A program made the position numbers and the translations under genes. The notes beneath the pieces were generated by a model. It was not told where the DNA came from. It did no database searches and saw nothing but the letters and a program-made list of their open reading frames with translations. Below, piece by piece: positions 6,567-36,019 of a DNA stretch of 36,159 nt. This stretch comes from a virus: positions 1 to 36,159 of the IMG/VR virus record IMGVR_UViG_3300045970_001208; one strand, written 5' to 3'. The stretch's first letter is position 1. Each line of letters begins with the position of its first letter.

Positions 6567-6641
6567 TGGTAGCGGCGGCGGGATTCGAACCCGCGACCCC
6601 CGGGGTATGAACCCAGTGCGCTTCCACTGCGCTACGCCGCA
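6567..6641 (-). tRNA. tRNA-Met (anticodon CAU), CCA encoded, initiator-like features
   Basis: On the minus strand, 75 nt fold into a cloverleaf. The acceptor stem is GCGGCG/CGCCGC with the first pair unpaired (T1-T72). The D stem is GCGC/GCGC with a 7-nt loop carrying GG. The anticodon stem ends in three G-C pairs (GGG/CCC) around loop TTCATAC with anticodon CAT, but has one T-C mismatch. The variable loop has 5 nt. The T arm is GCGGG-TTCGAAT-CCCGC, then discriminator A and encoded CCA. An unpaired 1-72 position and three G-C pairs next to the anticodon loop are hallmarks of initiator tRNA. The C11-G24 pair is elongator-like, so the identity is mixed. Confidence 0.9.
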
Positions 6642-9687: not shown

Positions 9688-11343
<1,656 letters not shown>

Positions 11344-11349
11344 GACACC

Positions 11350-12912
11350 ATGCGCGCAGCTCTGTCCGCCCGCGTCTCCACTCAGGAGCAGGCGGAGAAA
11401 ATCGCCCCCATCGCGGACCAGCTGGCCTGCGGACGCGCGTTCTGTGCGTCGCACGAGTGGCCCGTCGCCCTCGAGGAGGTCGACGAGGGGATCTCCGGAT
11501 CCGTCTGGCCCCGGCCGGGCCTGATGTCCCTCCTCGAGGCCGCCCGCCGCGGGGAGTTCGAGATCCTCGTCGTCTGGGCGTACTCACGCGTCGGAAGGGA
11601 CGAAAACCTCGAGCTATTCGGCCACATCATGTGGGAGTTCCGGCAGGCCGGCGTCCGGGTGGTCTCGGTCACGGAGGAGGGCGCCTCGCCCATCGAGACC
11701 AACGTCCAGGGCATGATGGCGGGGATCGCGCTCCAGAAGCTGAAGGACGACGTCAACCGGGGCATGCGACAGAAGGCCGGGCGCCGGGAGTACACCGGGG
11801 GCCGAGCCCTCTTCGGCTACAACTGGACCTCGCGCACCGAACGGGTCGTGGTTCCGGAGGAGGCAGCCATTGTCGCTCGTGTCTACGAGATGGCCGACCC
11901 GGCCGGGGAGTGCCGCCAGCTGGCCACCATCGCCAGGGAACTGGGCCTCGAGCTTCAGCGAGTGCGCCGGATGCTCCGCCACCCTGGGTACGCCGGGGCC
12001 TACACCTACTCCCGGTTCACCTTCGCCGGCGCAGGGAGCCGTAAGAAGATGGCGCGGCCGGCCCCCCTCGATCGCCAGATCATCACCTGGGGTGCCCACG
12101 AGGAAATCGTTCCCCGGGACCTCTGGGACCGCGTCCAGCAGCGATTGGACGAGCAGGCGGAACGGCGCCCGAACAACAACGGCCAGGCCAGCCTCCCCCT
12201 CACGGGACTCGTCCGGTGCGGCGTCTGCAGTCGGCCGCTCCGCGTGACCGGCTTCCATCGGCCTCCGGGGGACGTCCCCGTTCGGTACTACTACCGATGC
12301 GACACGGACGGGTGCCCAGGCATCGGCAACGCCTGCGTGGCCGGATGGACGACCGACGTCGTCCGAGCGGTGATGGAGCAGCTGCGCCGGCCGGACATCG
12401 CGGACGCGATCGTCGCGGAGATCCGACGGGCCTACGACGATGGCCGACGGTCCGGGGCCTGGGAGGCGGAGGTCCGGAGGCTCGAGAAGGCGGAGGCGTC
12501 CATCCGGGCCGTGATCTCCTCCGGGGAGATCTCCGACACGCGCGCCTTGGCCCGGGATTACGAGGCCACGCGGAGGGGGCTGGAACGCGCACGGGCGTCG
12601 CTGGAGCGCGACCGGCGGAAGGCGGGGCTACGGATATCCCCCGCGTCGATTCGGGCGCGCCTGGCGCGCGCGTGTGCGCTCCTGGGGGCTTTGGAGGACC
12701 GCACCGAGGCCGACAAAGCGGTCCGCCCGCTCTTGGCCCATTTCGTCGAGTCGATCACCGTGGAACCGGGCGCGGAACGTGCGACGGTGCAACTGCGTAG
12801 CGACGTCGTGGACGTTCCCCCACAGCCGTATCTATCGGGTGGACGCGAGATACGACCGTTGAGTTTCCCGATGGTGCTCCCGCCTCGGGCGCTAAGTCGC
12901 AGGCGTGGATAG
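11350..12912 (+). CDS. int: Large serine recombinase (phage integrase)
   Basis: This 520-aa protein starts at ATG 11350, 6 bp after the methyltransferase stop. The N-terminal resolvase domain (1 to ~150) has Arg8 and nucleophile Ser10 (ARVS), the GISG turn (47-50), and SRVGRD (79-84), all standard active-site landmarks. A recombinase/zinc-ribbon part follows. It has LTGLVRCGVCSRPLR and a second Cys cluster (CDTDGCPGIGNAC), with four or more cysteines placed as in large serine integrases, then a coiled-coil segment (~375-425). It catalyses attP x attB integration through a covalent 5'-phosphoserine. The attachment site is normally beside the gene; see the dyad at 13161-13198. It shows that the phage is temperate. 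Confidence 0.92.
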   Translation: MRAALSARVSTQEQAEKIAPIADQLACGRAFCASHEWPVALEEVDEGISGSVWPRPGLMSLLEAARRGEFEILVVWAYSRVGRDENLELFGHIMWEFRQAGVRVVSVTEEGASPIETNVQGMMAGIALQKLKDDVNRGMRQKAGRREYTGGRALFGYNWTSRTERVVVPEEAAIVARVYEMADPAGECRQLATIARELGLELQRVRRMLRHPGYAGAYTYSRFTFAGAGSRKKMARPAPLDRQIITWGAHEEIVPRDLWDRVQQRLDEQAERRPNNNGQASLPLTGLVRCGVCSRPLRVTGFHRPPGDVPVRYYYRCDTDGCPGIGNACVAGWTTDVVRAVMEQLRRPDIADAIVAEIRRAYDDGRRSGAWEAEVRRLEKAEASIRAVISSGEISDTRALARDYEATRRGLERARASLERDRRKAGLRISPASIRARLARACALLGALEDRTEADKAVRPLLAHFVESITVEPGAERATVQLRSDVVDVPPQPYLSGGREIRPLSFPMVLPPRALSRRRG

Positions 12913-24069: not shown

Positions 24070-24530
24070 CAGACTGCCCCCGCGGGAAGGACGTCCGGGG
24101 CGTCGGCGGCCACCTTGTAGGCGCAGGCCCAGGCCAACTTCGCCACCCCGACCGGTCGCTCGAGCTTTCCGGACAGGGAGATGCTCGTCTCCTGGAGATC
24201 CGACCAGGACACCAGCCCGCCGAGGGTCGGATCGGTCGCCAGCGCGACCTCCACCTCGGCGGCGATGGTGTCGAGTTGGGCGTCGACGTCGACACCGGAC
24301 GGGGGCTTGACTCGCGCCTCGATCACCAGGGTCAGCTCACGCTTCTGGAGTTTCCGGCCGCTGTCACCGGACGCGGAGCGCTTCTCGTTCAAAGTGTAGA
24401 TGCACAGGCCCGGTACGGTTCCGGACCCGCTGGGGTAGACCCGGCTGGGATAGACCCTGCTTCCGGTGGTCGTGAGACCGGTCACGAGGGTCCGGACGGC
24501 GTCCCGGATCTGCTGCCGCGCGTGGGCCAT
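24069..24530 (-). CDS. Tail terminator-like protein (lambda gpU-type)
   Basis: This 153-aa protein starts at ATG 24530 (one-base overlap, TGATG). It begins MAHARQQIRDAVRTLVTGL, an amphipathic helix typical of gpU-like terminators, followed by SRVYPSRVYPSG (a short in-frame direct repeat) and beta strands (LTLVIEARVK). In lambda-like phages gpU caps the tail tube and joins it to the head. The position between the Z-like gene and the tube gene fits. Confidence 0.6.
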   Translation of the reverse strand: MAHARQQIRDAVRTLVTGLTTTGSRVYPSRVYPSGSGTVPGLCIYTLNEKRSASGDSGRKLQKRELTLVIEARVKPPSGVDVDAQLDTIAAEVEVALATDPTLGGLVSWSDLQETSISLSGKLERPVGVAKLAWACAYKVAADAPDVLPAGAV

Positions 24531-25162
24531 CAGAGGCGCCCCATCCGCTTGTCGACCCGGTATTGCAGGTCCCGGTCCGCGAGCTCGCGGGTGGCCTCCG
24601 CGGCGACCGCAGCATGCCGGTTCAGGGCGGAGATGGCCTCCGCCTGGATGTCGATCTTCACGGCTTCGATCGGGCGCCGACCGGGGCCTTTCCGGCGGAA
24701 CACCATGGTGTGGCCGCCGATCCCCTCCTCGATGAACGCATCGGGCCAGTGGAACCCGCCCGGGGCCGTGACGCCGGACCCCACGTTGACCCGCAGGTTC
24801 TTCCCGACCCTCCGCTCGCCCCACTTGCGACCGCCCGAGCGACGATCGCTGCCGGTGTCCCGGATCCCCGCCAGGCGGATCGCGGGGACCGGGTTGGTCA
24901 TGATCCGGATCGTGGCTGCGGGCCGGCCGAGCTTGGCCCGGTTGAGGCGGATCCGCTTCCGGATGACCTTCTTGGGAGAGATCTTCAGGAGCCCCGAGAC
25001 TTCCCCCACGATGTCACCGATCGCGCTCGTGGACGCCCGGTTCAGGGCGTAGCAGGCCGCCAACTCAGCCTCCCGCGGCAGGGCCCCCAGCTCGCGCACG
25101 AGGTCCTGGTACTGCTGGTCCGCCCGCAGAAGGCTTTTCGGTTGAAACTGCATGGGGATCAC
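24530..25162 (-). CDS. Minor tail protein Z-like (head-tail neck)
   Basis: This 210-aa protein starts at GTG 25162, overlapping the stop of the previous gene (GTGA). It is helical, with an N-terminal leucine-rich stretch (ADQQYQDLVRELGALPREAELA). It has the pattern of minor-tail-Z: KKVIRKRIRLNRA, AIRLAGIRDTG, a central GGFHWPDAFIEEG segment and basic KGPGRRPIEAVKIDI. The gpZ family connects the tail to the capsid. Gene order FII-like, unknown, Z-like, U-like matches lambda. Confidence 0.7.
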   Translation of the reverse strand: MIPMQFQPKSLLRADQQYQDLVRELGALPREAELAACYALNRASTSAIGDIVGEVSGLLKISPKKVIRKRIRLNRAKLGRPAATIRIMTNPVPAIRLAGIRDTGSDRRSGGRKWGERRVGKNLRVNVGSGVTAPGGFHWPDAFIEEGIGGHTMVFRRKGPGRRPIEAVKIDIQAEAISALNRHAAVAAEATRELADRDLQYRVDKRMGRL

Positions 25163-26034
25163 ACCCTCGGGAGCGTGTAGCGGACACGCAGGAAGGGCCG
25201 GTTGCCGCCGTTGTCGCCGAGTTCGGAGTAGAACCGCGCGGTCGCATTTGCCCCGCTCGCGCGGAGGAGGTAGGGCACCAGCGCGGTCTTGTTCGCATCG
25301 AGATCCGCCCCCAGCGGGGTGCCATACTCCGCACCGCCCAGGAGGCGCGTCTGGCCGGCAGTGACGCCGAGCCGACGGCCGAACTCACCTTCCCCGTAGT
25401 CCAGGCCGACGCTGGAGGCCCCCGGAGCACTCCACGCCTTCCCGCTGGCGCGTTGGGTCCAGGTCGCCCAGGCTGGATCGAGGCCTTTCAGGATCCGGTG
25501 GGCGGAGATGGTCGGCCCCCCGTAGCTGGCGTCCCCGGTCACGAAGAGCGCCGCCCAGTCGATCCGCGCGGCAGCGGGGATCCCGACGGGGCACAGCGGG
25601 CCGATGACGACGATGCCGTGGGCTTTCGTGGGGCCGCTCCGGACATACGTGAACTCGGGTTCGTTCGTCTCGGGATCTACGATCACGGGGAAGGTCGGGT
25701 TGGCCTCGTCGATCCAGAACACCTGCAGGTGCCCGTCCATCGCGTAGAGGTCGACCTGGTGCCCGAGGCTGGAGAGCACGAGGGTCAACAGGGCCCGCGA
25801 TGGGTCCGGCTGGAGGGAGACGACCTCGAGGCGTTCGGTCCCCCGGAGGAGAACGTCACTGACGGCCGGAGCGCCGGAGGTCGGGACGGTCAGGCGGATC
25901 ACCGAGCCGGTGACCCCGAGGTCTTCCGCGGACTGCCAGTCGAGAACGCCCCGGATGGTCGCGGTGTCGCTCTCCCGGGTCAGGTCTTCCGCCCACTCGC
26001 AGAAGAACGCCGTGGTGTCGCCGACGACCGTCAT
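25159..26034 (-). CDS. Hypothetical virion-associated protein with a DNRLRE-like C-terminal domain
   Basis: This 291-aa protein starts at ATG 26034 (ATGA overlap). The first half is beta-rich with no clear family. Residues ~165-290 look like a DNRLRE/carbohydrate-binding beta-sandwich: AALFVTGDASYGGPTISAHR, then ATWTQRASGKAWSAPGA, where TW-x-W spacing is typical, then a closing RFYSELGDN strand. It sits in the neck block between the FII-like joining protein and gpZ. A carbohydrate-binding decoration or neck appendage is a reasonable reading, but the assignment is weak. Confidence 0.45.
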   Translation of the reverse strand: MTVVGDTTAFFCEWAEDLTRESDTATIRGVLDWQSAEDLGVTGSVIRLTVPTSGAPAVSDVLLRGTERLEVVSLQPDPSRALLTLVLSSLGHQVDLYAMDGHLQVFWIDEANPTFPVIVDPETNEPEFTYVRSGPTKAHGIVVIGPLCPVGIPAAARIDWAALFVTGDASYGGPTISAHRILKGLDPAWATWTQRASGKAWSAPGASSVGLDYGEGEFGRRLGVTAGQTRLLGGAEYGTPLGADLDANKTALVPYLLRASGANATARFYSELGDNGGNRPFLRVRYTLPRV

Positions 26035-26321
26035 CCGCTGACGTACTCCAACTCGAGCACGGTGACACCCGTTCCGTCCGGTTGGATGGTCGTGACCGAG
26101 TAGGTCTTCCCGGCCACCGTCGCCGCATCGCCCTCGTCCAGGGTCCCGGGGAGGTCCGAGGACCGGCAGGTGAGCTTGGGGCTGGTCCCCTCGATGTCGT
26201 CCTGCTCGGCGTAGCCGTCGTCGAAGATCGCGAGAATCGCGACGCCGGCCACGGTGGCCGGTTCCGCGAACTCCCTCTCGACGAAGAACGGCGAGAGGTC
26301 CTCGGTGAACTCCAGCGTCAT
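26031..26321 (-). CDS. Head-tail joining protein, lambda FII-like
   Basis: This 96-aa protein starts at ATG 26321 (ATGA overlap with the GT9 gene). It has the FII beta-barrel pattern: an N-terminal acidic segment, IFDDGYAEQDDIEGTSPKL, RSSDLPGTLDEGDAATV and GKTYSVTTIQPDGTG. Each part lines up with the lambda protein's FDDP, SSPSL, RRGDTLTIGxxxF and VSPDDGG segments. It would sit at the portal end of the head to accept the tail. Its position downstream of the inserted glycosyltransferase shows that gene is a late addition. Confidence 0.8.
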   Translation of the reverse strand: MTLEFTEDLSPFFVEREFAEPATVAGVAILAIFDDGYAEQDDIEGTSPKLTCRSSDLPGTLDEGDAATVAGKTYSVTTIQPDGTGVTVLELEYVSG

Positions 26322-27844
26322 CGAACCTCCGCCAGCTCCGCGACGACCGGAGCCGAGAGGTACTGATCAATGAGACCGATGATCAGGTCGGGGCGCGCGG
26401 CGGCGTGGCAGGCTGCCGCCTTGGTGCCTTCGTCGATCGTGCAGAAGTGGGGCGTCAGGTGGATCCGGTGGCATGGGTAGCAGTCCAGGCCCTGCGGCTC
26501 GATCGCCACCGAGTTGATCCAGTGCTTCGTGAGATTCTCGTCCGTGGAGTGCCCGAGGAGGCAGATGGTCAGCTGCTCCTCAAAGGCGGAGGCGTTGGTA
26601 AACACGGACTCGCACCCGACCACGACGTCCGCCACCATCGCCAGGGCGAGCGCCCTCCTGATCGGGAGGTCGAGGCCGATGATCCGGCCCGGGGGCGCAT
26701 CGAACTTGGCGTCCCGGATGTCCCCCAGGACGAACGTGATCCATCCCTTGCCCGCCGCCATGTCCAGGAACCTCTGCGTGTGGGGATACCACTTCACGCA
26801 GGAGGACCCGCTCGGCGCCAGGATCACCATCGGCCCGCCGCCGGCCGCGGCCCGGACCGACCGGGCCTCCTCGAGTTCCGCCTCCGTGGGGTAGAACTTC
26901 TGGCGAAACTTGTGGGGCACGCCCGCGAAGTCGTGGTACGCCTCGAGGTAGTTCTGGTTCATGAACAGGTGGCGGACCCGGTCGGGCCAGTGGAACCCCC
27001 CGTCCGACGGCGCCGGGAGCAGGCGCGTCTCGACCGCCCCGACCAGGTTCACGAACCGGTCGTACTTCCGCGCCATCCACATCCAGTAAGCGAGCATTTC
27101 CGAGCCCGCGATCATGCCGGAGTCCTGGATCACGAACCGGTCGATGTGGGGATCGTTGGCGAGAACCATCGCGCCGCCGTGCTCGGTGCAGACCGTCACG
27201 TGGTAGCCCTCTGCCTTCAGGGCCGGGAGGATCGAGGAAGCCCACAGGGCGTCTCCCAGGCCGCCGTACCGGACCACGCAGGCGGTCTTCGTCGGCTTGG
27301 GGTTCATCCACGACTCCAGCTGGCCGGCGCCCGCCTCCCGCTTCCGGTAGGCCTGCAGGAATGAGTACTCCATGCCCAGATTCCGTTCCTCGTTGTCCAC
27401 GAGGTCCCAGTCTGGGGCGGCTTCGCGCATGAGGGCGACGACGTCCGAGGGGTGGAAGTCGCTCTTGTGATCCGGGTTGGCGCCCGGCTGACCCATGCGC
27501 GGATAGAAGTCCCGGTGCGGCAGGTACAGAACGAGGTGGCCCCCGGGCTTCACCAGGGACAGCCAGTGGCGCAGGACGGCCCCGGGATCCTCCATGTGTT
27601 CGAGCACGTGCGACGAGAACACGAAGTCGAGCGACTCGGGCGAGAAGAACTCCAGCTTCCGGCAGTCCGCCACGACGTCCGGTGACCCGTTGCTGAACCG
27701 GTGGACGTCGACCCCGATCATGTGCGGGAGCGCCTTGGCCGGGCCGCATCCGATGTCGATACCACGCCCGCGGACGTAGGGGACCAGGTCCCAGCGCACC
27801 TTCGCCGACTCGTTTCCCTGGGGATCCTCGGGCCTCCAAACCAT
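26318..27844 (-). CDS. Fusion of SAM-dependent methyltransferase and GT9 (heptosyltransferase-like) glycosyltransferase
   Basis: This 508-aa protein starts at ATG 27844, 75 bp after the capsid stop. Residues ~15-170 are a class I methyltransferase: GIDIGCGPAK (28-37) as the SAM loop, GVDVH as acidic end of strand 2, and FSSHVLEHMEDP (77-88) as the post-I region. Residues ~187-495 match GT9: CVVRYGGLGDALWASSILPAL (189-209), corresponding to the heptosyltransferase Gly-rich start, then PMVILAPSGSSCVKWYP and ALAMVADVVVGCESVFTNASAF for nucleotide-sugar binding. GT9 enzymes transfer ADP-heptose in LPS core synthesis. A methylating glycosylator of virion or host surface sugar is inferred. No such gene occurs at this site in lambda-type heads, so it is an inserted cargo (moron). 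Confidence 0.85.
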   Translation of the reverse strand: MVWRPEDPQGNESAKVRWDLVPYVRGRGIDIGCGPAKALPHMIGVDVHRFSNGSPDVVADCRKLEFFSPESLDFVFSSHVLEHMEDPGAVLRHWLSLVKPGGHLVLYLPHRDFYPRMGQPGANPDHKSDFHPSDVVALMREAAPDWDLVDNEERNLGMEYSFLQAYRKREAGAGQLESWMNPKPTKTACVVRYGGLGDALWASSILPALKAEGYHVTVCTEHGGAMVLANDPHIDRFVIQDSGMIAGSEMLAYWMWMARKYDRFVNLVGAVETRLLPAPSDGGFHWPDRVRHLFMNQNYLEAYHDFAGVPHKFRQKFYPTEAELEEARSVRAAAGGGPMVILAPSGSSCVKWYPHTQRFLDMAAGKGWITFVLGDIRDAKFDAPPGRIIGLDLPIRRALALAMVADVVVGCESVFTNASAFEEQLTICLLGHSTDENLTKHWINSVAIEPQGLDCYPCHRIHLTPHFCTIDEGTKAAACHAAARPDLIIGLIDQYLSAPVVAELAEVR

Positions 27845-27871
27845 TTCGATGGGACTCCTCTTGGTGGTGGA

Positions 27872-27897
27872 GGGGAGACCTCTCGCGAGGCCTCCCC
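27872..27897 (-). terminator. Hairpin after the capsid gene
   Basis: GGGGAGACCTC (27872-27882) and GAGGCCTCCCC (27887-27897) pair over 10 of 11 positions with a 4-nt loop. It lies between the capsid stop (27920) and the glycosyltransferase start (27844). There is no U-run on the minus strand, so it may limit read-through or stabilise the capsid mRNA. Confidence 0.5.
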
Positions 27898-27919
27898 CGT
27901 GGGTGTCAGTTCGCCAGGA

Positions 27920-29905
27920 TCAGGAGATCCCGAGCAGCTTGTTGAACGACGCCGTCTGCCGGAACGCGATGTCGACGTCCTGGAGGGCGACGATGCGGAC
28001 GGTGCCGGAGGAACTCCCGGTGAACGGGTCCACCAGGATGTCGACGCCCGACCAGAGGCCGATCAGCAGGTCCGACCAGTTGCCGAAGATCGCGCACTTG
28101 GCGGACCCCGTGGTCGTGCCGTACGTGAGGTTCACCGGCACCTGGTTGGTGACGTAGGCCGGATAGCCGTTGACCGAGCCGTCGTTCTCCATGATGAAGC
28201 CGAGCGACCCGGCGGTGCCCTTGACCGTGGTCTTGAGCGTCCCCCGGACCTGCGGACTCAGCATGTAGGCCATCTTGCCCATGTCCGCGTTGCCCGCCGC
28301 GATCGCGGTCTCGCAGGCGACGATGCCCGCCCACGTCGGCGCCGCGGCCTGCGCGCCCATCGAACTCGTCCCGATCGCGGTGCTGGTGACGATCCCGAGG
28401 GGGGTCGCCGCCGTCCCCGCGCCGGCGATGCACGCGGCGTCGACGCCCAGGCCGAGAACCGCGAACAGATCGCTCCGCATGAGGTTCTCGACGCTGAGAG
28501 CCGGCTGGAGCAGCGTCTTCCGGGAGTAGTCCACGAACGCACCGACCGTCTTCGGGGACAGCGTGACCTGGTCGAAGGTCACGGCCGTCGACTCCGTCGG
28601 CGAGTTCCCTTCCGTGATCCAGTAGGCCACCGACGCGCCGGTCCGCCGCGGGATCGCGACGTTCCCCTGGAGACCATTGAGGACGGTGGCGCCGGCCGCG
28701 ATGACCATCGCCTTGTTCCTCAGGATCTCGATGAACGAGTCGGAGAGCACGTCCGTCTGCACGAGGTTCCCGCCCAGCGATCCGGTCCCGACGATGACGT
28801 CGCGCTGCCCGAACACCTCCGGAGGGATCGAGATCTGCGCGCCCTCGCGGAGACCGCGGTTGGCCACCTTCAGGGCGGCCTCGGAGACCTCGAACTCGAA
28901 CTCCGCCGCGGCCTGGGCCCGGCGGTCGGTCGGGTTCGCGAGGGCGTGCACCACCCGCATGAGCGAGTAGCGCTTCACTTCCTTCCGGCTGAGGCCGACC
29001 ACGGGCTCGACCACGGGGGCCCGGCCGCTGTTGCCGTACAGCTTGGCGAACAGCGCCTCGCGGAACTGGTCCACCGATCCGCCGTTGTCGACGAACTGGC
29101 GCGCGAGCTCCGGGCCGCCCTTGTCCCGCGCCTGGTCACCGATCGCGAGGATCTCCCGGGTCCGGTCGCGCTCGGCCCGACGGCCGTCGCTCTCCATCCC
29201 CCGGATCTCCGGAGGAGGATTGGGGATCGTGGCCGCGGCAGCGGCCGGCTCGGAGCCGTCCGCCCCCGGCAGGTTCAGGGTCTGAGTGGGGTCCATTGGG
29301 ACCTCCTTTCGCTCATTTCCAGGTGCGGTCGGTGGGGTGACAACGCTCCGCCCGACGCCGACACGCGTATCCGCCGGGATGGAGCACAGTGAAGCCTCAA
29401 ACGGACGCCACCGCGTGACCCGGTAGACCGGGGGCGCGCCCTTCTTCTCGGACTCGAGTTGGAGGTCGAGGATCTCGTAGCCGATGGAGACGTTCCCGCG
29501 GATGCCGTCGATGACGTCCTTCCACGCGTACTCCTGGGCCGGCGACGCGGACCCGAAGCGAACAGTCGCATCACACTTCTTCCGCCCCTCGTTCACCTCG
29601 GCGCTTTCGATCACGCCCAGCTGGATGCGCGGGTCGTGGTTCTCGAGGAACGGACCGAACCGGCCCGAGGTGAGGCGCGCCAGGTCCACGGACTTCGCCT
29701 GGTGGTCCAGGATCTCCACGCCCCACCACCGCTCGACCGGGGTCTCGGAACTGATGGATAGGCTGATCCGGCGGTTCTCCTCGTCGATGTTGGCGCGCTC
29801 GATCGGCTGGAGGATCCGCGGAAGATCCCGCTGGCCTCCGTCGCCGGAGTTGATCCGGTCCAGGAGATTCCGCTTGGCCTGCGGGGTCAGGTCATTCGTT
29901 TCCAT
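27920..29905 (-). CDS. Fusion of prohead protease (S78) and HK97-type major capsid protein
   Basis: This 661-aa protein starts at ATG 29905 behind AAGGAGG, overlapping the portal stop by 14 bp. Residues ~50-185 are the protease: His90 in FLENHD, Ser140 in NVSIGY, Glu170 in RPFEASLCSIP. From ~204 the HK97 fold begins. The first part (204 to ~300) is helical and Ala/Glu-rich, the scaffolding delta domain, and residues ~325-661 form the capsid (a motif-bearing NLVQTDVLSDSFIEILRNKAM and a C-terminal FNKLLG). The protease should cut itself free and process capsid. An internal start with its own Shine-Dalgarno at ATG 29296 would make capsid alone (458 aa). It is the most highly expressed late product. 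Confidence 0.9.
   Translation of the reverse strand: METNDLTPQAKRNLLDRINSGDGGQRDLPRILQPIERANIDEENRRISLSISSETPVERWWGVEILDHQAKSVDLARLTSGRFGPFLENHDPRIQLGVIESAEVNEGRKKCDATVRFGSASPAQEYAWKDVIDGIRGNVSIGYEILDLQLESEKKGAPPVYRVTRWRPFEASLCSIPADTRVGVGRSVVTPPTAPGNERKEVPMDPTQTLNLPGADGSEPAAAAATIPNPPPEIRGMESDGRRAERDRTREILAIGDQARDKGGPELARQFVDNGGSVDQFREALFAKLYGNSGRAPVVEPVVGLSRKEVKRYSLMRVVHALANPTDRRAQAAAEFEFEVSEAALKVANRGLREGAQISIPPEVFGQRDVIVGTGSLGGNLVQTDVLSDSFIEILRNKAMVIAAGATVLNGLQGNVAIPRRTGASVAYWITEGNSPTESTAVTFDQVTLSPKTVGAFVDYSRKTLLQPALSVENLMRSDLFAVLGLGVDAACIAGAGTAATPLGIVTSTAIGTSSMGAQAAAPTWAGIVACETAIAAGNADMGKMAYMLSPQVRGTLKTTVKGTAGSLGFIMENDGSVNGYPAYVTNQVPVNLTYGTTTGSAKCAIFGNWSDLLIGLWSGVDILVDPFTGSSSGTVRIVALQDVDIAFRQTASFNKLLGIS
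29294..29309 (-). promoter_or_regulatory. Internal ribosome-binding site for separate capsid synthesis
   Basis: On the minus strand, AAAGGAGGT (complement 29301-29309) matches the 16S 3' end over 9 bases and is 4 nt before ATG 29296. Methionine 204 of the fusion thus starts a 458-aa delta-plus-capsid protein in the same frame. The sequence supports two products: full fusion and capsid only. Confidence 0.75.
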
Positions 29906-31472
29906 CGACGTTGTCCTCCTTCGCGGGATCGGACTGTGAACCGGACGCCGGCGCGGTCGCCGCGGGGGCGGTCGCTCCGGCCGCGGGCCAGTCCAGGCCC
30001 TTCGCCTTGACGTAGTCGCGGGCCTCGGCGACCTCGTCGACGATCCCGAAGAAGTCGTGTCCAGCCTCGCGGGCCAGCTTCTGCGGAGACGTCTGGAACG
30101 TGTCGAGGGCGAGCTTGTTCGCCTGCTGGTCCTTGATCGGATCGACCCACGGCCAGCGCCGGGCCTGCCACGAGACCTGGTGGTATTTCTCCTCGCGGTT
30201 CACGGAGAGCGGCATCGGGCCGGTGGAGGTGGGCACCATGATCGTTCCGAACCGGAGGTTGAAGCGCAGCCAGCGCCGGTAGACCTCGGACACGAACGCC
30301 TCGATGAACCACTCCTGCAGCGCCTTCCACACCTCGCGCTCCTCGAGGACGCCCGCGCGGATCGACGAGTAGTTGACCCCCTCGAGGTCGGAGGCGAGGA
30401 GGTTGTAGGAGCAGCTGACGGACGAGGCGAACTTCCGAAGGCACGCCTTGACGAACGGGTCGAACTCCCCGTTCGGATACTTGTTGTCGTGGGCCACCAG
30501 CTCCTGGTTGTACGCCAGGTGCCCATACTCCCCGGGCTCGGACGGGAGCACGACGTTCCCCTGGGCGTCCTTGCCTTCCCCGGCGAACTTCGCCTCCTCG
30601 GAGTCCCGGATGAACATGGGGCTGTTGGCGCCCACCCGGGCCGCGACGAGCGCCGCCTCGCCATACTTCGCGATCAGATGGGCGTCCCACAGACCGGCCG
30701 TCGCCCAGGGCATCCCGCGCGACTGGCCGATCAGTTCCGGAATGTAGGCATGGATGACCCGGTCCGCTTCGATGCGCACCGGCTGGGTCGTCGCGTACGC
30801 CTGGGACGTCGCGGAGTAGGTGTCCGGGCGGGTCGTCAGGTGGTAGGCCACCACTGCCCCGAGCGCGTCCATCTCTATGCCCATGACGATCCGGCCGCCG
30901 TTGCGCAGGGGCTCGTTGCGGTTGATGTCCAGCAGCTCCGGGTCGATGAGTCGGACGGAGAAGTGGTATCCCGTGTCGTCCTTCGTCTCGTCCGTCAGCG
31001 CCAGGATCTCGCCGTCGATCGCGCCGTTCGACGCGGCCTGCCGCTGGATGCCCGTCCAGGTGAGGCGCCGGCGGGAGTCGCACGTCTTGAGTTGGCCCCA
31101 CTTCTGCCAGGCGGATTCGACCGCCTGGCTCGCCAGGGGATCCGGCGTGCCCGTCTCGTCCTTGAACCGGGCCTGCAGGATGACGCCCTTGGCTCCGACG
31201 AGGTTCGTCTCGACCATCCGCACGAACCGACGGATGTAGCCGTTGTTGTAGTAATCACTCCGGGACCGCGCGCGGGTGGCGCGCTGGTTGCGGAGGACGA
31301 GATCGTCCGCGGCGACCGGGTACGTCGGCCAGTCCCCGGAGAGCCGGTCCAGCCGGGCGGCGGACACGAGGTTTCGGACGGCGGAGGAACGCTGGGACCG
31401 CGGGGCCCGGCCGGCCATGGAACTTCCCAGGCGCTCGAGGGCACTCCCGAGGGCCCGGCCGACGCGGGACAC
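29892..31472 (-). CDS. Portal protein (lambda gpB family)
   Basis: This 526-aa protein starts at GTG 31472, sharing one base with the preceding TAG. It has the lambda portal pattern: an N-terminal Arg/Ser stretch, DYYNNGYIRRFVRMVETNLVG, then WTGIQRQAASNGAIDGEILALT and VRLIDPELLDI, and the C-terminal WxxFNLRFGTIMVPTS crown region. The portal forms the dodecameric ring at one vertex for DNA entry. Order terminase, connector, portal, protease/capsid follows lambda. Confidence 0.88.
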   Translation of the reverse strand: MSRVGRALGSALERLGSSMAGRAPRSQRSSAVRNLVSAARLDRLSGDWPTYPVAADDLVLRNQRATRARSRSDYYNNGYIRRFVRMVETNLVGAKGVILQARFKDETGTPDPLASQAVESAWQKWGQLKTCDSRRRLTWTGIQRQAASNGAIDGEILALTDETKDDTGYHFSVRLIDPELLDINRNEPLRNGGRIVMGIEMDALGAVVAYHLTTRPDTYSATSQAYATTQPVRIEADRVIHAYIPELIGQSRGMPWATAGLWDAHLIAKYGEAALVAARVGANSPMFIRDSEEAKFAGEGKDAQGNVVLPSEPGEYGHLAYNQELVAHDNKYPNGEFDPFVKACLRKFASSVSCSYNLLASDLEGVNYSSIRAGVLEEREVWKALQEWFIEAFVSEVYRRWLRFNLRFGTIMVPTSTGPMPLSVNREEKYHQVSWQARRWPWVDPIKDQQANKLALDTFQTSPQKLAREAGHDFFGIVDEVAEARDYVKAKGLDWPAAGATAPAATAPASGSQSDPAKEDNVDGNE

Positions 31473-32032
31473 TACCGGAACTCCACGCGGATGCGGCTGC
31501 CCGTGCCCTGTCCCTTGGAGATCTTGTCTGCCTGGCGTTCCGCCTCGTACTCCCGGCGCCAGCGGTTGCGTTCGGCGTGCAGCTGGTCATAGGTCCAGTT
31601 CTGCAGCGACCGGCCGTTGATCGCGTAGGAGGCGACGGTCGGGCTGTTCTGCAGCTTGAGGCGGATCCCTTCCTCGACGAGGTCGAGCATCTCCTTCGCG
31701 AAGCTGCGCCCCTCGGAGGCGGATCCGAACGACGCCTCGACGGTCAGCGTTCCCGTGTCGACCTCGTAGACATCAGATCCCTTCGTGACGATCGCGGAGT
31801 AGGGCCAGTCGCCCGCGGCCATCGCGCCACTGACGGTGGCGGAGACGGTGACGAGGAAGGTGCCGTCGGTGTTGTCGGTGCCCGCGACGGTGGTGAGCGC
31901 CGTGCCGTTGTTGAACCGATACGACAAAGTCCACCCGGCGGCCGGGCGGTAGTCGTCTCCGGGGTCCAGTGTCCACTTGGAGGTGGTGCCGGCGCGGATC
32001 TTGTCGGGGGCGACCGTCGGGGTGCTCGACAT
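31472..32032 (-). CDS. Ig-like domain fused to gpW-like head-tail connector
   Basis: This 186-aa protein starts at ATG 32032 behind GAAGGAGGG. Residues 1-100 form a beta-sandwich (AGTTSKWTLDPGDDYRPAAG, LTTVAGTDNTDGTFLVTVSA, VTKGSDVYEVDTGTLTVEA), resembling small phage Ig-like modules. From ~125 on a helical gpW-like part follows: AINGRSLQNWTYDQLHAERN and a basic tail. gpW closes the portal channel in lambda. The position between large terminase and portal is exactly where lambda carries gpW. Fusion of a surface-like beta domain to gpW is noteworthy. Confidence 0.65.
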   Translation of the reverse strand: MSSTPTVAPDKIRAGTTSKWTLDPGDDYRPAAGWTLSYRFNNGTALTTVAGTDNTDGTFLVTVSATVSGAMAAGDWPYSAIVTKGSDVYEVDTGTLTVEASFGSASEGRSFAKEMLDLVEEGIRLKLQNSPTVASYAINGRSLQNWTYDQLHAERNRWRREYEAERQADKISKGQGTGSRIRVEFR

Positions 32033-32125: not shown

Positions 32126-34057
32126 TCAGGAGCGCCAGCCGCTGACCCAGTTCCCACCCCCTCGGCGGCGGGTGAAAGGAGACCGCCGGACGGGCGCGGA
32201 CGCCTGCGGAGGAGGGCTGGGGGGGGCCGCGGGAGGCGCGGTCGGCTCCTCGGGGGCGGCCGGTGGCCGGCCCGCAACCTGGTCCGCCCAGCGCTGCCGG
32301 TTGGCGGCGAGGGGCACCCAGTCCGGGTTCAGGATGTAGAGGGCGGCCAGGGCATACTTCCGGGCGTCGAACGCCTCGTTGCGGCGGCCCTTGATCAGCA
32401 CCCACTCCCGCCGCGGCAGCCCCCGGTGGGCCCGGACCTGCGCCTTCATCGAGGTGATCTGGGCGAAGTAGTTGCGGTCGTAGCCATACCCTTCGGCGGG
32501 GAAGTGGCAGTAACCCGGCCCCGATTCCTCGATCTTCAGGCGGGAGTGCACCAGGTTGGACGCCTGGTCGTCGCCCACGACCCACAACTCCACGTGGCGT
32601 TGGCCCCGACCGGTGCGCTTCTTCCGGGGGGCCTCGAGCACACCCGTCCCGAAGGCGCCGGACCCCTTGACCGCGTAGGCCCGTCCCTTGCGGGACTGGC
32701 AGAACCGGTAGACCTCTCGGGTGCGGTGTCCGGAGTCGACGCATGCGATCTGGACCGCGAGGGGAAACCCGTGCTCGTGCTGCCAGGTGAGGTCCAGGAA
32801 CTGGCCGAACCGCTCCCAGACGTCGCCCCGGCTGGTGTCCCCGCGGATCACCCGGTACTCCACGCCCCACGACTCTTCCCCGGGGCCCCACGCGACGACC
32901 TCGACCTCGATGCGGTCGTCCTGGATGTCCGCCCCGGCGGTCAGGACCAGGCCCCCGGCCGGCACCCGCGCGGGGTAGTCTTCCGCCCGGGCGGCCACTG
33001 ACGTCTCGTCGACGGCGTCGCCGTCCTCCTCCCAGGTCTCCGCGATGACGGTGTTGACCCACACCTTGAGTTCCTCGCGGCCAGCGGCCTTGGCCTTCAG
33101 GAACTCCGTCGCCGCGTCCGCCCACGAATACCACCCGAGGGGGCTGTAGAGGCCCGAGAGATGGAACCCCACCGTCCGGCCGTCCCCGGTGGCAGTCGGA
33201 ACCCACTCCCCGGCGGCCAGCATCTCGGTCTTCCGGCCCTCCTGGATGAGGCGCTCGCAGGCCTGGCACTTCATTGCGGCGAGGCGAGGCTCCCCCTCCG
33301 GCCACTGGATCGCGCTCCAGGTGATCGGCTGGAAGACCCCGCAGTAGGGACACGGCACGTGGTAGTAGCGCTGGTCGGTCTCGAGAAACGCCCGCTCGAT
33401 CCGGCTGATCCCCTTCAGTTTGGGCGTGGAGACCAGGAAGATCTTCCGGTTCCTCCGGAAGTTGCTGGTGCGCCGGCGCGCCAGCTCGACCGGGTCACCC
33501 TCCTCCTCGACGTCGGAGTCGAAGGCGTCGATCTCGTCCATGAAGAGGTAGCGGGCCGGCATCGACCGCAAACCGACCGCGCTGTTCGCCCCGGTCATAA
33601 CGAGGATCCCGCCCGGAAACTCCTTCGCGAGGATCGTGTTCCCCGAGTCCCGGCTGCGGGACTCGCGGACCCGTTCCCGCAGGGCCGGGCACGCCTCGAT
33701 CATGTGGGCGATCCGCTGCTTCGAGGTCCGCTTCACCATCTCGACGGTCGGCTGGACGTACAGCATCGGGCCGGGAGCCTGGTGGATGACGTACCCCAGC
33801 CAGTTGTTTCCGGCCTCCGTACCGCCCAACTGGGATCCCTTCATGAAGATCACGGTTTCGATGGGCGACGACGGCGAGAGCGCGTCCATGATCGCGCGCA
33901 GGTACGGGGTCCGGCCGGTGTCCCAGCGCCAGGCTTCCGCGCTGGACTGCTGGGACAACTCCCGGTAGCGGTCCGCCCACTCGCTCACGGTGAGGCGCGG
34001 GTCCGGCCGCAGCCCCTCGGACCAGCCGGCCCGGTAGACGGTGGCGGCGTCGGTCAT
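32126..34057 (-). CDS. Terminase large subunit (lambda GpA family)
   Basis: This 643-aa protein starts at ATG 34057 (ATGA overlap). The ATPase has a Walker A-like MKGSQLGGTEAG (72-83) and Walker B LFMDEID (171-177). A CPYC (236-239) and CQAC (264-267) pair gives a zinc site. The nuclease half carries TAGADIQDDRIEVEVVAWG, the GpA-type first acidic motif. The enzyme cleaves concatemers and drives DNA into the prohead. The family points to cos-type packaging. The last ~35 residues are Pro/Ala/Arg-rich. A 93-bp non-coding gap follows before the gpW-like gene. Confidence 0.92.
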   Translation of the reverse strand: MTDAATVYRAGWSEGLRPDPRLTVSEWADRYRELSQQSSAEAWRWDTGRTPYLRAIMDALSPSSPIETVIFMKGSQLGGTEAGNNWLGYVIHQAPGPMLYVQPTVEMVKRTSKQRIAHMIEACPALRERVRESRSRDSGNTILAKEFPGGILVMTGANSAVGLRSMPARYLFMDEIDAFDSDVEEEGDPVELARRRTSNFRRNRKIFLVSTPKLKGISRIERAFLETDQRYYHVPCPYCGVFQPITWSAIQWPEGEPRLAAMKCQACERLIQEGRKTEMLAAGEWVPTATGDGRTVGFHLSGLYSPLGWYSWADAATEFLKAKAAGREELKVWVNTVIAETWEEDGDAVDETSVAARAEDYPARVPAGGLVLTAGADIQDDRIEVEVVAWGPGEESWGVEYRVIRGDTSRGDVWERFGQFLDLTWQHEHGFPLAVQIACVDSGHRTREVYRFCQSRKGRAYAVKGSGAFGTGVLEAPRKKRTGRGQRHVELWVVGDDQASNLVHSRLKIEESGPGYCHFPAEGYGYDRNYFAQITSMKAQVRAHRGLPRREWVLIKGRRNEAFDARKYALAALYILNPDWVPLAANRQRWADQVAGRPPAAPEEPTAPPAAPPSPPPQASAPVRRSPFTRRRGGGNWVSGWRS

Positions 34058-34605
34058 GGCTCGATCGACTCCGCCTCGAGGGCTGTAGCTATTGCTTCCT
34101 GAAGCAGCTGTTCAACAGTGTGCGGGTCCGTCTCCTGGGCGAGGGTTCCGGCGACCCGCGCCGGGATCGAGAGCATCCGATCCCGGATGGACCGGGCCCT
34201 CCGGAAGGCCTCGAGCTTGACGTCGTCCGCCGGGATCAGCTTCCCGGCCTTGGTCTCGTAGGAGAGCTTCTTGAGCTTGGCCTCGTAGGCCTCCCGGACG
34301 GACCGGGACTGGCTGTAGGTCAGGCCCTCCCCTCGGCCGGACCCCTTGGCTGCGACCGCGACTGCAGCCGCCGCCGGCGCTGGCGCCGGCCGGTCCAGTT
34401 CCCGATTCGGGGGCACCGTGGCCCGCTCCCATTCAGCGTCCGCCCGGGCGGGATCGATCCGGCCAGCCGTGTTGGAACGGATCCTCCCGGACTGCAGTGC
34501 CTTCTGGATTGCGGAGGTGTTGGCGCCCCGGTAGCCCAGGGCGCGCCGGTGTTCCGCGTAGGCGCGGATGCTGAGGCCCTTGGAGTCATCACGCTTCCGC
34601 GCCAT
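34054..34605 (-). CDS. Terminase small subunit (Nu1-like)
   Basis: This 183-aa protein starts at ATG 34605 with a GAGGCGGG region upstream; the frame up to 34692 is shadow. Residues ~10-65 carry the winged HTH: LSIRAYAEHRRALGYRGA, SAIQKALQSGRI, then GRIDPARADAEW. An Ala/Pro linker follows. Residues ~100-180 form the helical oligomerisation part (VREAYEAKLKKLSYETKAGKL in pieces, ending RVAGTLAQE). It would bind cos and recruit GpA. The DNA-binding half is shared with the protein encoded at 392. Confidence 0.82.
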   Translation of the reverse strand: MARKRDDSKGLSIRAYAEHRRALGYRGANTSAIQKALQSGRIRSNTAGRIDPARADAEWERATVPPNRELDRPAPAPAAAAVAVAAKGSGRGEGLTYSQSRSVREAYEAKLKKLSYETKAGKLIPADDVKLEAFRRARSIRDRMLSIPARVAGTLAQETDPHTVEQLLQEAIATALEAESIEP

Positions 34606-35971
34606 CCGCACCCGCCTCAACCGGCGACTCGTCGCGCGCCGCCGCGGCCGCCGCGAAGGCGGTCCCCTGCCCCTCGAGCTCCGCGACCCCACCCGTGGCG
34701 GTCTGCCACCGCTCGACGATCACGTCACAGTAGGCCGGGTCCAGTTCCATAAGGAAGGCGTGCCGGCCCGTCTCCTCCGCTCCCATGAGCGTGCTCCCGC
34801 TGCCGCCGAAGAAGTCGAGGACGTTCTCCCCGGGCTTGGACGAGTATTGGATCGCCCGCACCGCGAGCTCGACGGGCTTCTCTGTTAGGTGGACCATCGC
34901 GGTCGGGGTGACCTTCTTGATCGCCCACAGGTCCGGGACGTTCGCGGGGCCGAAGAACCGGTGCGCCGCGCCTTCCTTCCATCCGTAGAAGCACCACTCG
35001 TGGGCGCCCATGAAGTCCTTCCGCGTGAGGACGGGGTGTTGCTTGTCCCAGATGATCGACTGGCTAAAGTAGAGTCCGGACGCCTTCAGGGCCGGTGGGT
35101 AGTTGGCGCAGTTGGCGTATCCGCCCCAGATGTAGAACCCACCGCCTGGGATGAGGACCGTGGCCATGTTGCCGAACCAGGCCAGGAGCAGCTCGTCGAA
35201 CGCCTCGTCCGTGACGAAGTCGTTCAGCAGGGGGCGGTCCTTCGCGCGCATCTTTCCCGTGGGCTTCGACTTCTCGGGATGGCGCGAGAGGTCGAGCGAC
35301 TGGTGGTGCTTCGGTCCCGCGAACGACGAGAGGCCGGCGTTGATGGCGTTGTTGGACCGCGGCTCGACCTTCACGTTGTAGGGCGGGTCAGCGTTCACGA
35401 GGTGAATCTGCCCCCCCCCGACGAGACGATGTACGTCGTTGACATTAGCGGAGTTACCGCACAGCAGACGATGGTTTCCGAGGATCCAGAGATCCCCGGG
35501 GCGGGAGACGGGATCGTCGGGCGGGGCCGGCGCAGCGACCTCCTCGACGGTCTCGTCGTCGAGCAGGTCGTGCAGCTCGTCCAGGTCGAAGCCGATCAAC
35601 TCGAGGTCGAAGTCGAGATCCTTGAGGGCCCGCAGCTCCTCGACCAGGAGGTCCTCGTCCCACCCCGCGTCCAGGGCGAGCTGGTTGTCCGCGATGATGT
35701 AGGCCCGCTTCTGCGCGGGCGTGAGGTGGGTGAGCTCGATCACGGGGACCGTGGCCATCCCGAGTTTCTGTGCTGCCAGCAGCCGGCCGTGCCCCGCGAT
35801 GATCCCGGCCTCGCCATCGATGAGGATCGGGTTGGTCCACCCGAACTCGACGAGGCTCGCCGCGATCTTGGAAATCTGTTCATCGCTGTGCGTTCGGGGG
35901 TTCCGGTCGTAGGGGCGGAGACCATCGACCGGCCACATGCGGATCTCGCGGGCCGAGGGGACGTCGGACAT
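34589..35971 (-). CDS. ParB-like domain fused to adenine-specific DNA methyltransferase
   Basis: This 460-aa protein starts at ATG 35971 behind AAGGTGG; a GTG at 36004 is alternative. Residues ~10-140 are the ParB/Srx-like domain: DGLRPYDRNPRTHSDEQ and AGHGRLLAA (GHGR 60-63, the nucleotide-binding box), followed by the acidic helix (DLLVEELRALKDLDFD). The methyltransferase has NADPPY (193-198) as motif IV and LDFFGGSGST (385-394) as motif I, so beta class, probably N6-adenine. This ParB-MTase architecture is common in phages near terminase genes and may methylate cos-adjacent DNA or protect from restriction. Confidence 0.88.
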   Translation of the reverse strand: MSDVPSAREIRMWPVDGLRPYDRNPRTHSDEQISKIAASLVEFGWTNPILIDGEAGIIAGHGRLLAAQKLGMATVPVIELTHLTPAQKRAYIIADNQLALDAGWDEDLLVEELRALKDLDFDLELIGFDLDELHDLLDDETVEEVAAPAPPDDPVSRPGDLWILGNHRLLCGNSANVNDVHRLVGGGQIHLVNADPPYNVKVEPRSNNAINAGLSSFAGPKHHQSLDLSRHPEKSKPTGKMRAKDRPLLNDFVTDEAFDELLLAWFGNMATVLIPGGGFYIWGGYANCANYPPALKASGLYFSQSIIWDKQHPVLTRKDFMGAHEWCFYGWKEGAAHRFFGPANVPDLWAIKKVTPTAMVHLTEKPVELAVRAIQYSSKPGENVLDFFGGSGSTLMGAEETGRHAFLMELDPAYCDVIVERWQTATGGVAELEGQGTAFAAAAAARDESPVEAGADGAEA

Positions 35972-36019
35972 TTTCGTACCACCTTTCGGATTCCGTACCA
36001 CCACAGATTCCCTTTGTCG

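What the first reader, a model, noticed from the sequence alone, without database searches (positions are those of the whole stretch)
26318..27844. Methyltransferase-GT9 glycosyltransferase fusion inserted inside the head operon
A heptosyltransferase-type GT9 domain is fused to an N-terminal SAM methyltransferase and sits between the capsid gene and the FII-like head-tail joining gene. The surrounding order is otherwise lambda-like. A hairpin (27872-27897) isolates it from the capsid message. It could glycosylate and methylate virion proteins during assembly, modify host LPS core to change phage adsorption, or make a sugar cap that hides the particle. The single-chain MTase-GT9 arrangement in the morphogenesis block is, as far as I know, unusual.
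Basis: partly seen in the sequence, partly recalled or inferred. Interest (0 to 1): 0.75.

Follow-up and report, generated by a model that had tools for sequence, protein, structure and literature searches.

The report
Phage capsid-operon sugar-and-methyl writer enzyme
A gene next to a virus's shell gene makes one protein with two enzyme halves, one predicted to attach a sugar and one to methylate it, and the same protein sits beside the shell genes of about a hundred other environmental phage contigs, so these phages probably chemically decorate their own particles.

Summary
Window 26318-27844 (minus) encodes 508 aa: a class I SAM methyltransferase (residues ~5-172) fused to a GT9-type GT-B glycosyltransferase (184-501). 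The AlphaFold2 model is confident (pLDDT 92.7); the C-terminal half matches GT9 structures (Z 22.6) and the N-terminal half methyltransferases (Z 15.9). The gene lies between the fused protease-capsid gene and head-closure Hc1 and overlaps Hc1 by ATGA.

It is not a one-off. 126 viral stretches encode relatives. Of 100 loci examined, 92 have a capsid gene upstream, of two different head types; in one type 46 of 55 capsid loci carry both domains downstream, four times as two genes. Cultured capsid relatives lack it, so it is accessory there. The slot sometimes also holds TylF, FkbM or GT2 genes. Distant methyltransferase-TPR-GT9 fusions in Burkholderiaceae lie beside HMW1C and two-partner-secretion genes, which points to a protein-linked acceptor.

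Best reading (inferred, ~0.6): it adds a host-derived sugar to a virion protein and O-methylates it. Donor, acceptor and catalysis are untested; canonical GT9 residues are changed (D to E, H to N), so heptose is not assured. The hairpin is real but lacks a U-run. Verdict: a new, widespread variant of phage virion-glycosylation modules.

The parts
26318..27844 (-). MTase-GT9 fusion gene, 508 aa (P0001)
27329..27844 (-). N-terminal class I SAM methyltransferase domain (residues 1-172; SAM-motif residues D30, G32, G34, D46; conserved LPH..YP..G....NPDHK..D)
27290..27328 (-). linker, residues 173-185
   Evidence: inference from domain limits
26342..27289 (-). C-terminal GT9-like GT-B domain (residues 186-501); D198 and K351 invariant, E412 invariant, N417 in 52 of 53
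26408..26482 (-). Cys/His cluster C455-x2-C458-H459-x2-H462-x5-C468-x10-C479, invariant in 53 of 53; a similar four-Cys motif is seen in host GT9 proteins and TibC
26318..26321 (-). ATGA overlap: MTase-GT9 stop and Hc1 start (likely translational coupling)
27855..27862 (-). RBS-like AAGAGGAG, ten bases before the ATG
   Evidence: sequence
27871..27898 (-). 12-bp GC-rich hairpin, GCGA loop, in the capsid to MTase-GT9 gap; no U-run
27920..29905 (-). fused head-maturation protease and HK97-type major capsid protein
26031..26321 (-). head-closure protein Hc1

Best explanation
The gene encodes a two-step glycan writer made late in infection with the head proteins. The GT9-like half transfers a sugar from a host nucleotide-sugar pool to a protein, or protein-bound glycan, of the virion; the methyltransferase half O-methylates that sugar, capping it. 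Shown here: the two domains, conserved catalytic-type residues, conserved position next to capsid and connector genes in two head types, exchange between fused and split forms, and absence of epimerase and nucleotidyltransferase matches from 20 relative contigs tested. Inferred: catalysis, donor, that the acceptor is a virion protein, that the methyl goes on the sugar, and the benefit (protection, altered surface or adsorption).
For: Fold of both halves. D198, aligning to the GxGD motif that carries the TibC/WaaC catalytic Asp, and the S347-x3-K351 pair, spaced as TibC T226/K230, are invariant or nearly so (PMC4358343). Position: of 100 loci, 49 have capsid type A upstream, 43 type B, 2 have the gene just upstream of portal and capsid; Hc1 follows in 37, often overlapping by ATGA. 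In type B, 46 of 55 capsid loci with enough downstream sequence carry MT and GT, four as separate genes. The fusion tree splits by head type with one change; fusion and capsid distances correlate (Mantel r 0.73 and 0.42). Extra TylF, FkbM, GT2 genes in the slot. Burkholderiaceae MTase-TPR-GT9 fusions, MTase half homologous (hhalign 99%, E 4e-18), lie beside HMW1C and/or TPS genes in 8 of 12 distinct loci. Precedents: PBCV-1 A064R (PMC9614988), Corndog (PMC4351075), WsaE (PMC2943079). Four prophage-host genomes carry GT9 and HldE-type genes.
Against: No biochemical or mass-spectrometry evidence. Canonical GT9 D-[ST]-G-x-x-H is E-[ST]-x-x-x-N, so donor or chemistry may differ. The GT half of the bacterial exoprotein-associated fusions does not align to the phage GT half, so their acceptor is only suggestive. 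The closest capsid relatives lack the gene, so it is not needed for assembly as such. One relative (L099) has only the GT9 half.
Confidence: 0.6

Rival explanations
1. Host envelope modification: the enzyme alters LPS core or another surface glycan during lysogeny or late infection, changing receptor availability or excluding other phages.
For: GT9 enzymes include LPS core heptosyltransferases WaaC and WaaF; the carrier prophage hosts have GT9 and HldE-type genes.
Against: The gene lies in the late head operon, coupled to Hc1 by ATGA, not in a lysogeny-expressed moron position; bacterial MTase-GT9 fusions lie by exoprotein-glycosylation genes; the conserved residue changes differ from the host GT9s seen here.
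Confidence: 0.17
2. The protein modifies something else (a host protein, small molecule, tRNA, or a defence component), and the head-operon slot is only a tolerated insertion site for accessory genes.
For: The slot is variable and empty in many capsid relatives.
Against: In head type B the gene is near-universal and in the same block; co-inheritance with capsid; accompanying slot genes are sugar-type methyltransferases, GT2 and surface-type proteins.
Confidence: 0.15
3. DNA modification, as suggested in PMC10449497 for a GT9 plus SAM-methyltransferase pair in Pseudomonas prophages.
For: Phages do glycosylate DNA with GT-B enzymes (general knowledge); PMC10449497 reads a similar gene pair this way.
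Against: The MTase half is Methyltransf_11/23 type, not N6_N4_Mtase, and the window has separate N6_N4 DNA methyltransferases; late head position; best structural matches are GT9 enzymes acting on glycans or proteins.
Confidence: 0.04

Closest known systems
GT9 heptosyltransferases (WaaF 1psw, WaaC 2h1h, Veillonella 3tov)
   Same: GT-B fold, N-terminal GxGD Asp, phosphate-binding Lys, C-terminal four-Cys motif found in several host GT9s
   Different: fused to a methyltransferase; D-[ST]-G-x-x-H replaced by E-[ST]-x-x-x-N; encoded in a phage head operon
TibC / bacterial autotransporter heptosyltransferases (4rap, 4rb4)
   Same: GT9-like protein-modifying fold, Cys finger, S/T-x3-K spacing (Z 19; PMC4358343)
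   Different: no N-terminal beta-barrel; W305 position appears to be Asn (alignment by eye); methyltransferase instead; acceptor unknown
PBCV-1 A064R (GT-GT-MTase; builds and O-methylates the end of the major capsid protein glycan; PMC9614988)
   Same: virus-encoded glycosyltransferase fused to a methyltransferase
   Different: algal virus, GT-A plus a novel GT, N-glycan; domain order reversed; no sequence relation tested
WsaE of Geobacillus (N-terminal MTase plus two rhamnosyltransferases, S-layer glycan cap; PMC2943079)
   Same: N-terminal methyltransferase fused to glycosyltransferase, methyl cap
   Different: rhamnosyltransferase, bacterial S-layer glycan export pathway; no sequence relation tested
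Mycobacteriophage Corndog and Che8 virion-modification genes (PMC4351075; Che8 via PMC11256854)
   Same: Corndog has an O-methyltransferase and glycosyltransferases within the head operon; capsid glycosylation is reported for Che8
   Different: separate genes, different position (Corndog: between portal and protease), mycobacterial hosts
Burkholderiaceae MTase-TPR-GT9 proteins beside HMW1C and TPS genes (L293, L294, L312-L315, L317, L318)
   Same: MTase and GT9 on one chain; MTase half homologous (43% over 115 aa; hhalign 99%)
   Different: TPR region between the domains; GT half not alignable by sequence; cellular
Pseudomonas prophage vB_PaeS-D14C GT9 and methyltransferase pair (BK061477)
   Same: GT9-annotated gene and Methyltransf_23 gene adjacent, in the head-tail connector region
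   Different: separate genes, very weak sequence relation; its GT had no Pfam hit here

Membership tests
Class I SAM methyltransferase (Methyltransf_11/23) | Pfam profile above cut-off | tested here: met
   53 of 53 relatives match
Class I SAM methyltransferase (Methyltransf_11/23) | Rossmann-type MTase fold with GxG motif and acidic residue at the end of strand 2 | tested here: met
   (G32, G34, D46; Z 15.9 to 3dli)
Class I SAM methyltransferase (Methyltransf_11/23) | SAM-dependent methyl transfer | not testable with these tools
   needs an enzyme assay
GT9 | PF01075 profile match | tested here: inconclusive
   window protein: none; 23 of 53 relatives match at E up to 1, best 6.8e-8
GT9 | GT-B fold closest to GT9 structures | tested here: met
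   3tov Z 22.6, 1psw Z 22.4
GT9 | GxGD catalytic-type Asp and phosphate-binding Lys | tested here: met
   D198 and K351 in 53 of 53
GT9 heptosyltransferases | D-[ST]-G-x-x-H nucleotide-sugar motif | tested here: not met
   E412 in 53/53 and N417 in 52/53; host GT9s have D..H. Hence called GT9-like, not filed as a heptosyltransferase
GT9 heptosyltransferases | ADP-heptose donor | not testable with these tools
   needs an enzyme assay
TibC/BAHT protein heptosyltransferases | four-Cys iron finger | tested here: inconclusive
   four invariant Cys with similar spacing, but plain host GT9s have similar motifs
TibC/BAHT protein heptosyltransferases | N-terminal beta-barrel domain | tested here: not met
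   the N-terminal domain is a methyltransferase
Phage virion-glycosylation module | genes in the structural operon | tested here: met
Phage virion-glycosylation module | glycan on a virion protein | not testable with these tools
   needs virion mass spectrometry

The most novel reading that the evidence does not exclude
Tailed phages with different head types share a dedicated sugar-plus-methyl capping enzyme coupled to capsid expression, and in part of the family its acceptor or partner is a tiny Pro/Ala-rich, Trp-tailed protein (about 24-51 aa) encoded between the capsid gene and the fusion, in some loci overlapping the capsid stop and/or the fusion start.
Probability: 0.12. Interest if true: 0.85.

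Novelty: new variant of a known kind. Interest (0 to 1): 0.6.

Why it matters
Glycosylated phage capsids are known from only a few systems. If this reading holds, a single two-domain enzyme family marks virion decoration in many environmental phages, makes it searchable by sequence, and offers carriers in cultured hosts (Aromatoleum, Paraburkholderia, Pseudothauera prophages) in which to test what capsid sugars do for a phage.

Tried and rejected
A four-Cys motif as proof of a TibC-like protein glycosyltransferase: rejected, because host GT9 proteins carry a similar motif. A terminator at the window hairpin: not supported, no U-run. Cultured phages with the fusion: none found; tblastn of P0001, of L093 and of a split GT9 found only methyltransferase-half matches or nothing. 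Phage-encoded sugar supply: no PF01370 or PF12804 match in 20 relative contigs, though these may be fragments. The Pseudomonas D14C pair as a close homologue: sequence relation very weak. An Hc1 profile built by iteration was contaminated by an out-of-frame ORF overlapping the fusion gene and was rebuilt. The capsid tree places the window among phages lacking the gene, but several nodes are unsupported, so independent gain versus loss elsewhere is open. VIA-align lists are limited to Foldseek's top chains; families missing from them are not excluded.

Full report
What is there. The window is a 36,159-base virus record. The ORF at 26318-27844, minus strand, encodes 508 aa. Upstream lie TerL (32126-34057), a head-tail joining protein (31472-32032), portal (29892-31472) and a fused protease-capsid (27920-29905); downstream lie Hc1 (26031-26321) and a neck protein (24530-25162). 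The stop codon overlaps the Hc1 start as ATGA.

Domains. Pfam puts Methyltransf_23/11 on residues 25-119. The C-terminal half of the window protein alone has no Pfam GT9 hit, but 23 of 53 relatives match PF01075 (best 6.8e-8), and family profiles find GT9 structures 3tov and 1psw. An AlphaFold2 model built on 53 sequences has pLDDT 92.7 and pTM 0.90. Residues 184-501 align with GT9 structures at Z 22.6 (3tov) and 22.4 (WaaF), and residues 5-172 with class I methyltransferases at Z about 16. D198, K351, E412 and four Cys are invariant in 53 sequences. The heptosyltransferase motif D-[ST]-G-x-x-H reads E-[ST]-x-x-x-N here, so GT9-like is the safe label and the donor is open.

Relatives and position. 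Viral scans found 126 stretches encoding relatives; 80 were kept. Counting 100 loci including prophages and the window, 49 have the type A capsid upstream (mostly within about 140 bases; a few gaps are 192-672 bases), 43 the type B capsid (395 to 4,357 bases upstream, with cement-type and small genes between), 2 have the gene just upstream of portal and capsid, and the rest are too short or unresolved. Type B capsids belong to phages with a different portal and capsid family. In a capsid-based scan, 46 of 55 type B loci with at least 2.5 kb downstream carry both domains; in L137, L141, L162 and L194 they are separate neighbouring genes. In type A, the 53 loci of the capsid scan nearest the window's capsid carry none of the fusion and one a methyltransferase alone. 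Cultured relatives (Roseobacter CRP-811, Rhodobacter RcRhea, E. coli ep3, Vibrio D65, E. coli PTXU04) lack it. So it is near-core in one group and clade-restricted in another.

Evolution. The fusion tree splits by head type with a single change. Fusion and capsid distances correlate (Mantel r 0.73 in A, 0.42 in B). On the type A capsid tree carriers form one clade plus the window, which falls among non-carriers (2 changes against about 30 in shuffles), but some nodes are unsupported: the window may be an independent gain into the same slot or a lineage that kept the gene.

Hints about function. The slot sometimes also holds TylF and FkbM sugar-type methyltransferases, a GT2, and pectate-lyase-like or lectin-like surface proteins. 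The nearest cellular relatives seen are Burkholderiaceae MTase-TPR-GT9 proteins; of 12 distinct loci (L294 and L309 are the same), 8 lie beside HMW1C and/or TPS genes. Their methyltransferase half is homologous, their GT half is not alignable. HMW1C is a protein glycosyltransferase of secreted adhesins (PMC3012730). A Pseudomonas siphoprophage carries a GT9-annotated gene and a methyltransferase side by side in its connector region. Four prophage-host genomes hold GT9 and HldE-type genes, and 20 relative contigs show no epimerase or nucleotidyltransferase match, consistent with borrowing a host sugar nucleotide.

The hairpin. It is real (12 bp, GCGA loop, about 27871-27898), without a U-run. 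Many type A relatives have strong hairpins in the same gap, several with U-runs (L011, L012, L014, L033, L038, L042, L086), so a post-capsid attenuator is plausible in the group and undemonstrated in the window.

A companion seen on the way. In eleven type A relatives (twelve counting the near-identical pair L034/L035) a short ORF lies between capsid and fusion: about 24-51 aa, basic start, Pro/Ala-rich, ending in a Trp-rich tail. In L031, L037, L041, L047, L085 and L092 its start overlaps the last base of the capsid stop; in L029, L031, L034 and L085 its end overlaps the fusion start by ATGA; in L011, L040 and L050 neither holds. Loose scans of 66 type A loci without the fusion gave three unrelated-looking hits. 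The window lacks it. It may be a partner or acceptor; this is speculation.

Mechanism, steps marked. Shown: two domains on one chain; conserved position; conserved catalytic-type residues. Inferred: the GT9-like half moves a sugar from a host nucleotide-sugar onto a virion protein or a glycan already on it; the methyltransferase half, held beside it, methylates the new sugar; the cap stops further extension or changes the surface. The order (sugar first, then methyl) is taken from WsaE and A064R by analogy, not from data here.

Known systems. Virus-encoded GT-MTase fusions exist (PBCV-1 A064R, PMC9614988), bacterial ones too (WsaE, PMC2943079), and mycobacteriophages carry separate O-methyltransferase and glycosyltransferase genes in the head block (PMC4351075), with capsid glycans reported for Che8 (cited in PMC11256854). 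No paper found in ten searches of the open-access library describes this MTase-GT9 phage family; subscription papers were not searched.

Noticed in passing
L011, L029, L031, L034, L035, L037, L040, L041, L047, L050, L085, L092, between capsid and MTase-GT9 genes: A short Pro/Ala-rich, Trp-tailed ORF (about 24-51 aa). Its start overlaps the capsid stop in six loci and its end overlaps the fusion start in some; not seen in 66 type A capsid loci without the fusion apart from three unrelated-looking hits.
   Followed up: partly
L088:7103-9100: The type B capsid gene of the Aromatoleum prophage is interrupted by about 1 kb holding an opposite-strand HNH endonuclease ORF, perhaps a homing intron.
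   Followed up: partly
window 11350-12912 (+): Large serine recombinase (Resolvase and Recombinase domains), so the phage is probably temperate.
   Followed up: partly
window 9688-11343 (+): N6_N4 DNA methyltransferase with an Mrr-like C-terminal stretch, next to the recombinase.
   Followed up: no
window 34589-36004 (-): ParB-N plus N6_N4 DNA methyltransferase upstream of TerL; homologues in several relatives.
   Followed up: no
window 6567-6641 (-): tRNA-Met (CAT) found by ARAGORN.
   Followed up: no
L091:3367-6058: A full MTase-GT9 fusion followed by a second, separate methyltransferase and the start of a separate GT9 gene, so the pair occurs fused and split in one locus.
   Followed up: partly
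L099:9959-11047: GT9 half alone, without the methyltransferase, at the usual place in a Methylophaga MAG prophage.
   Followed up: partly
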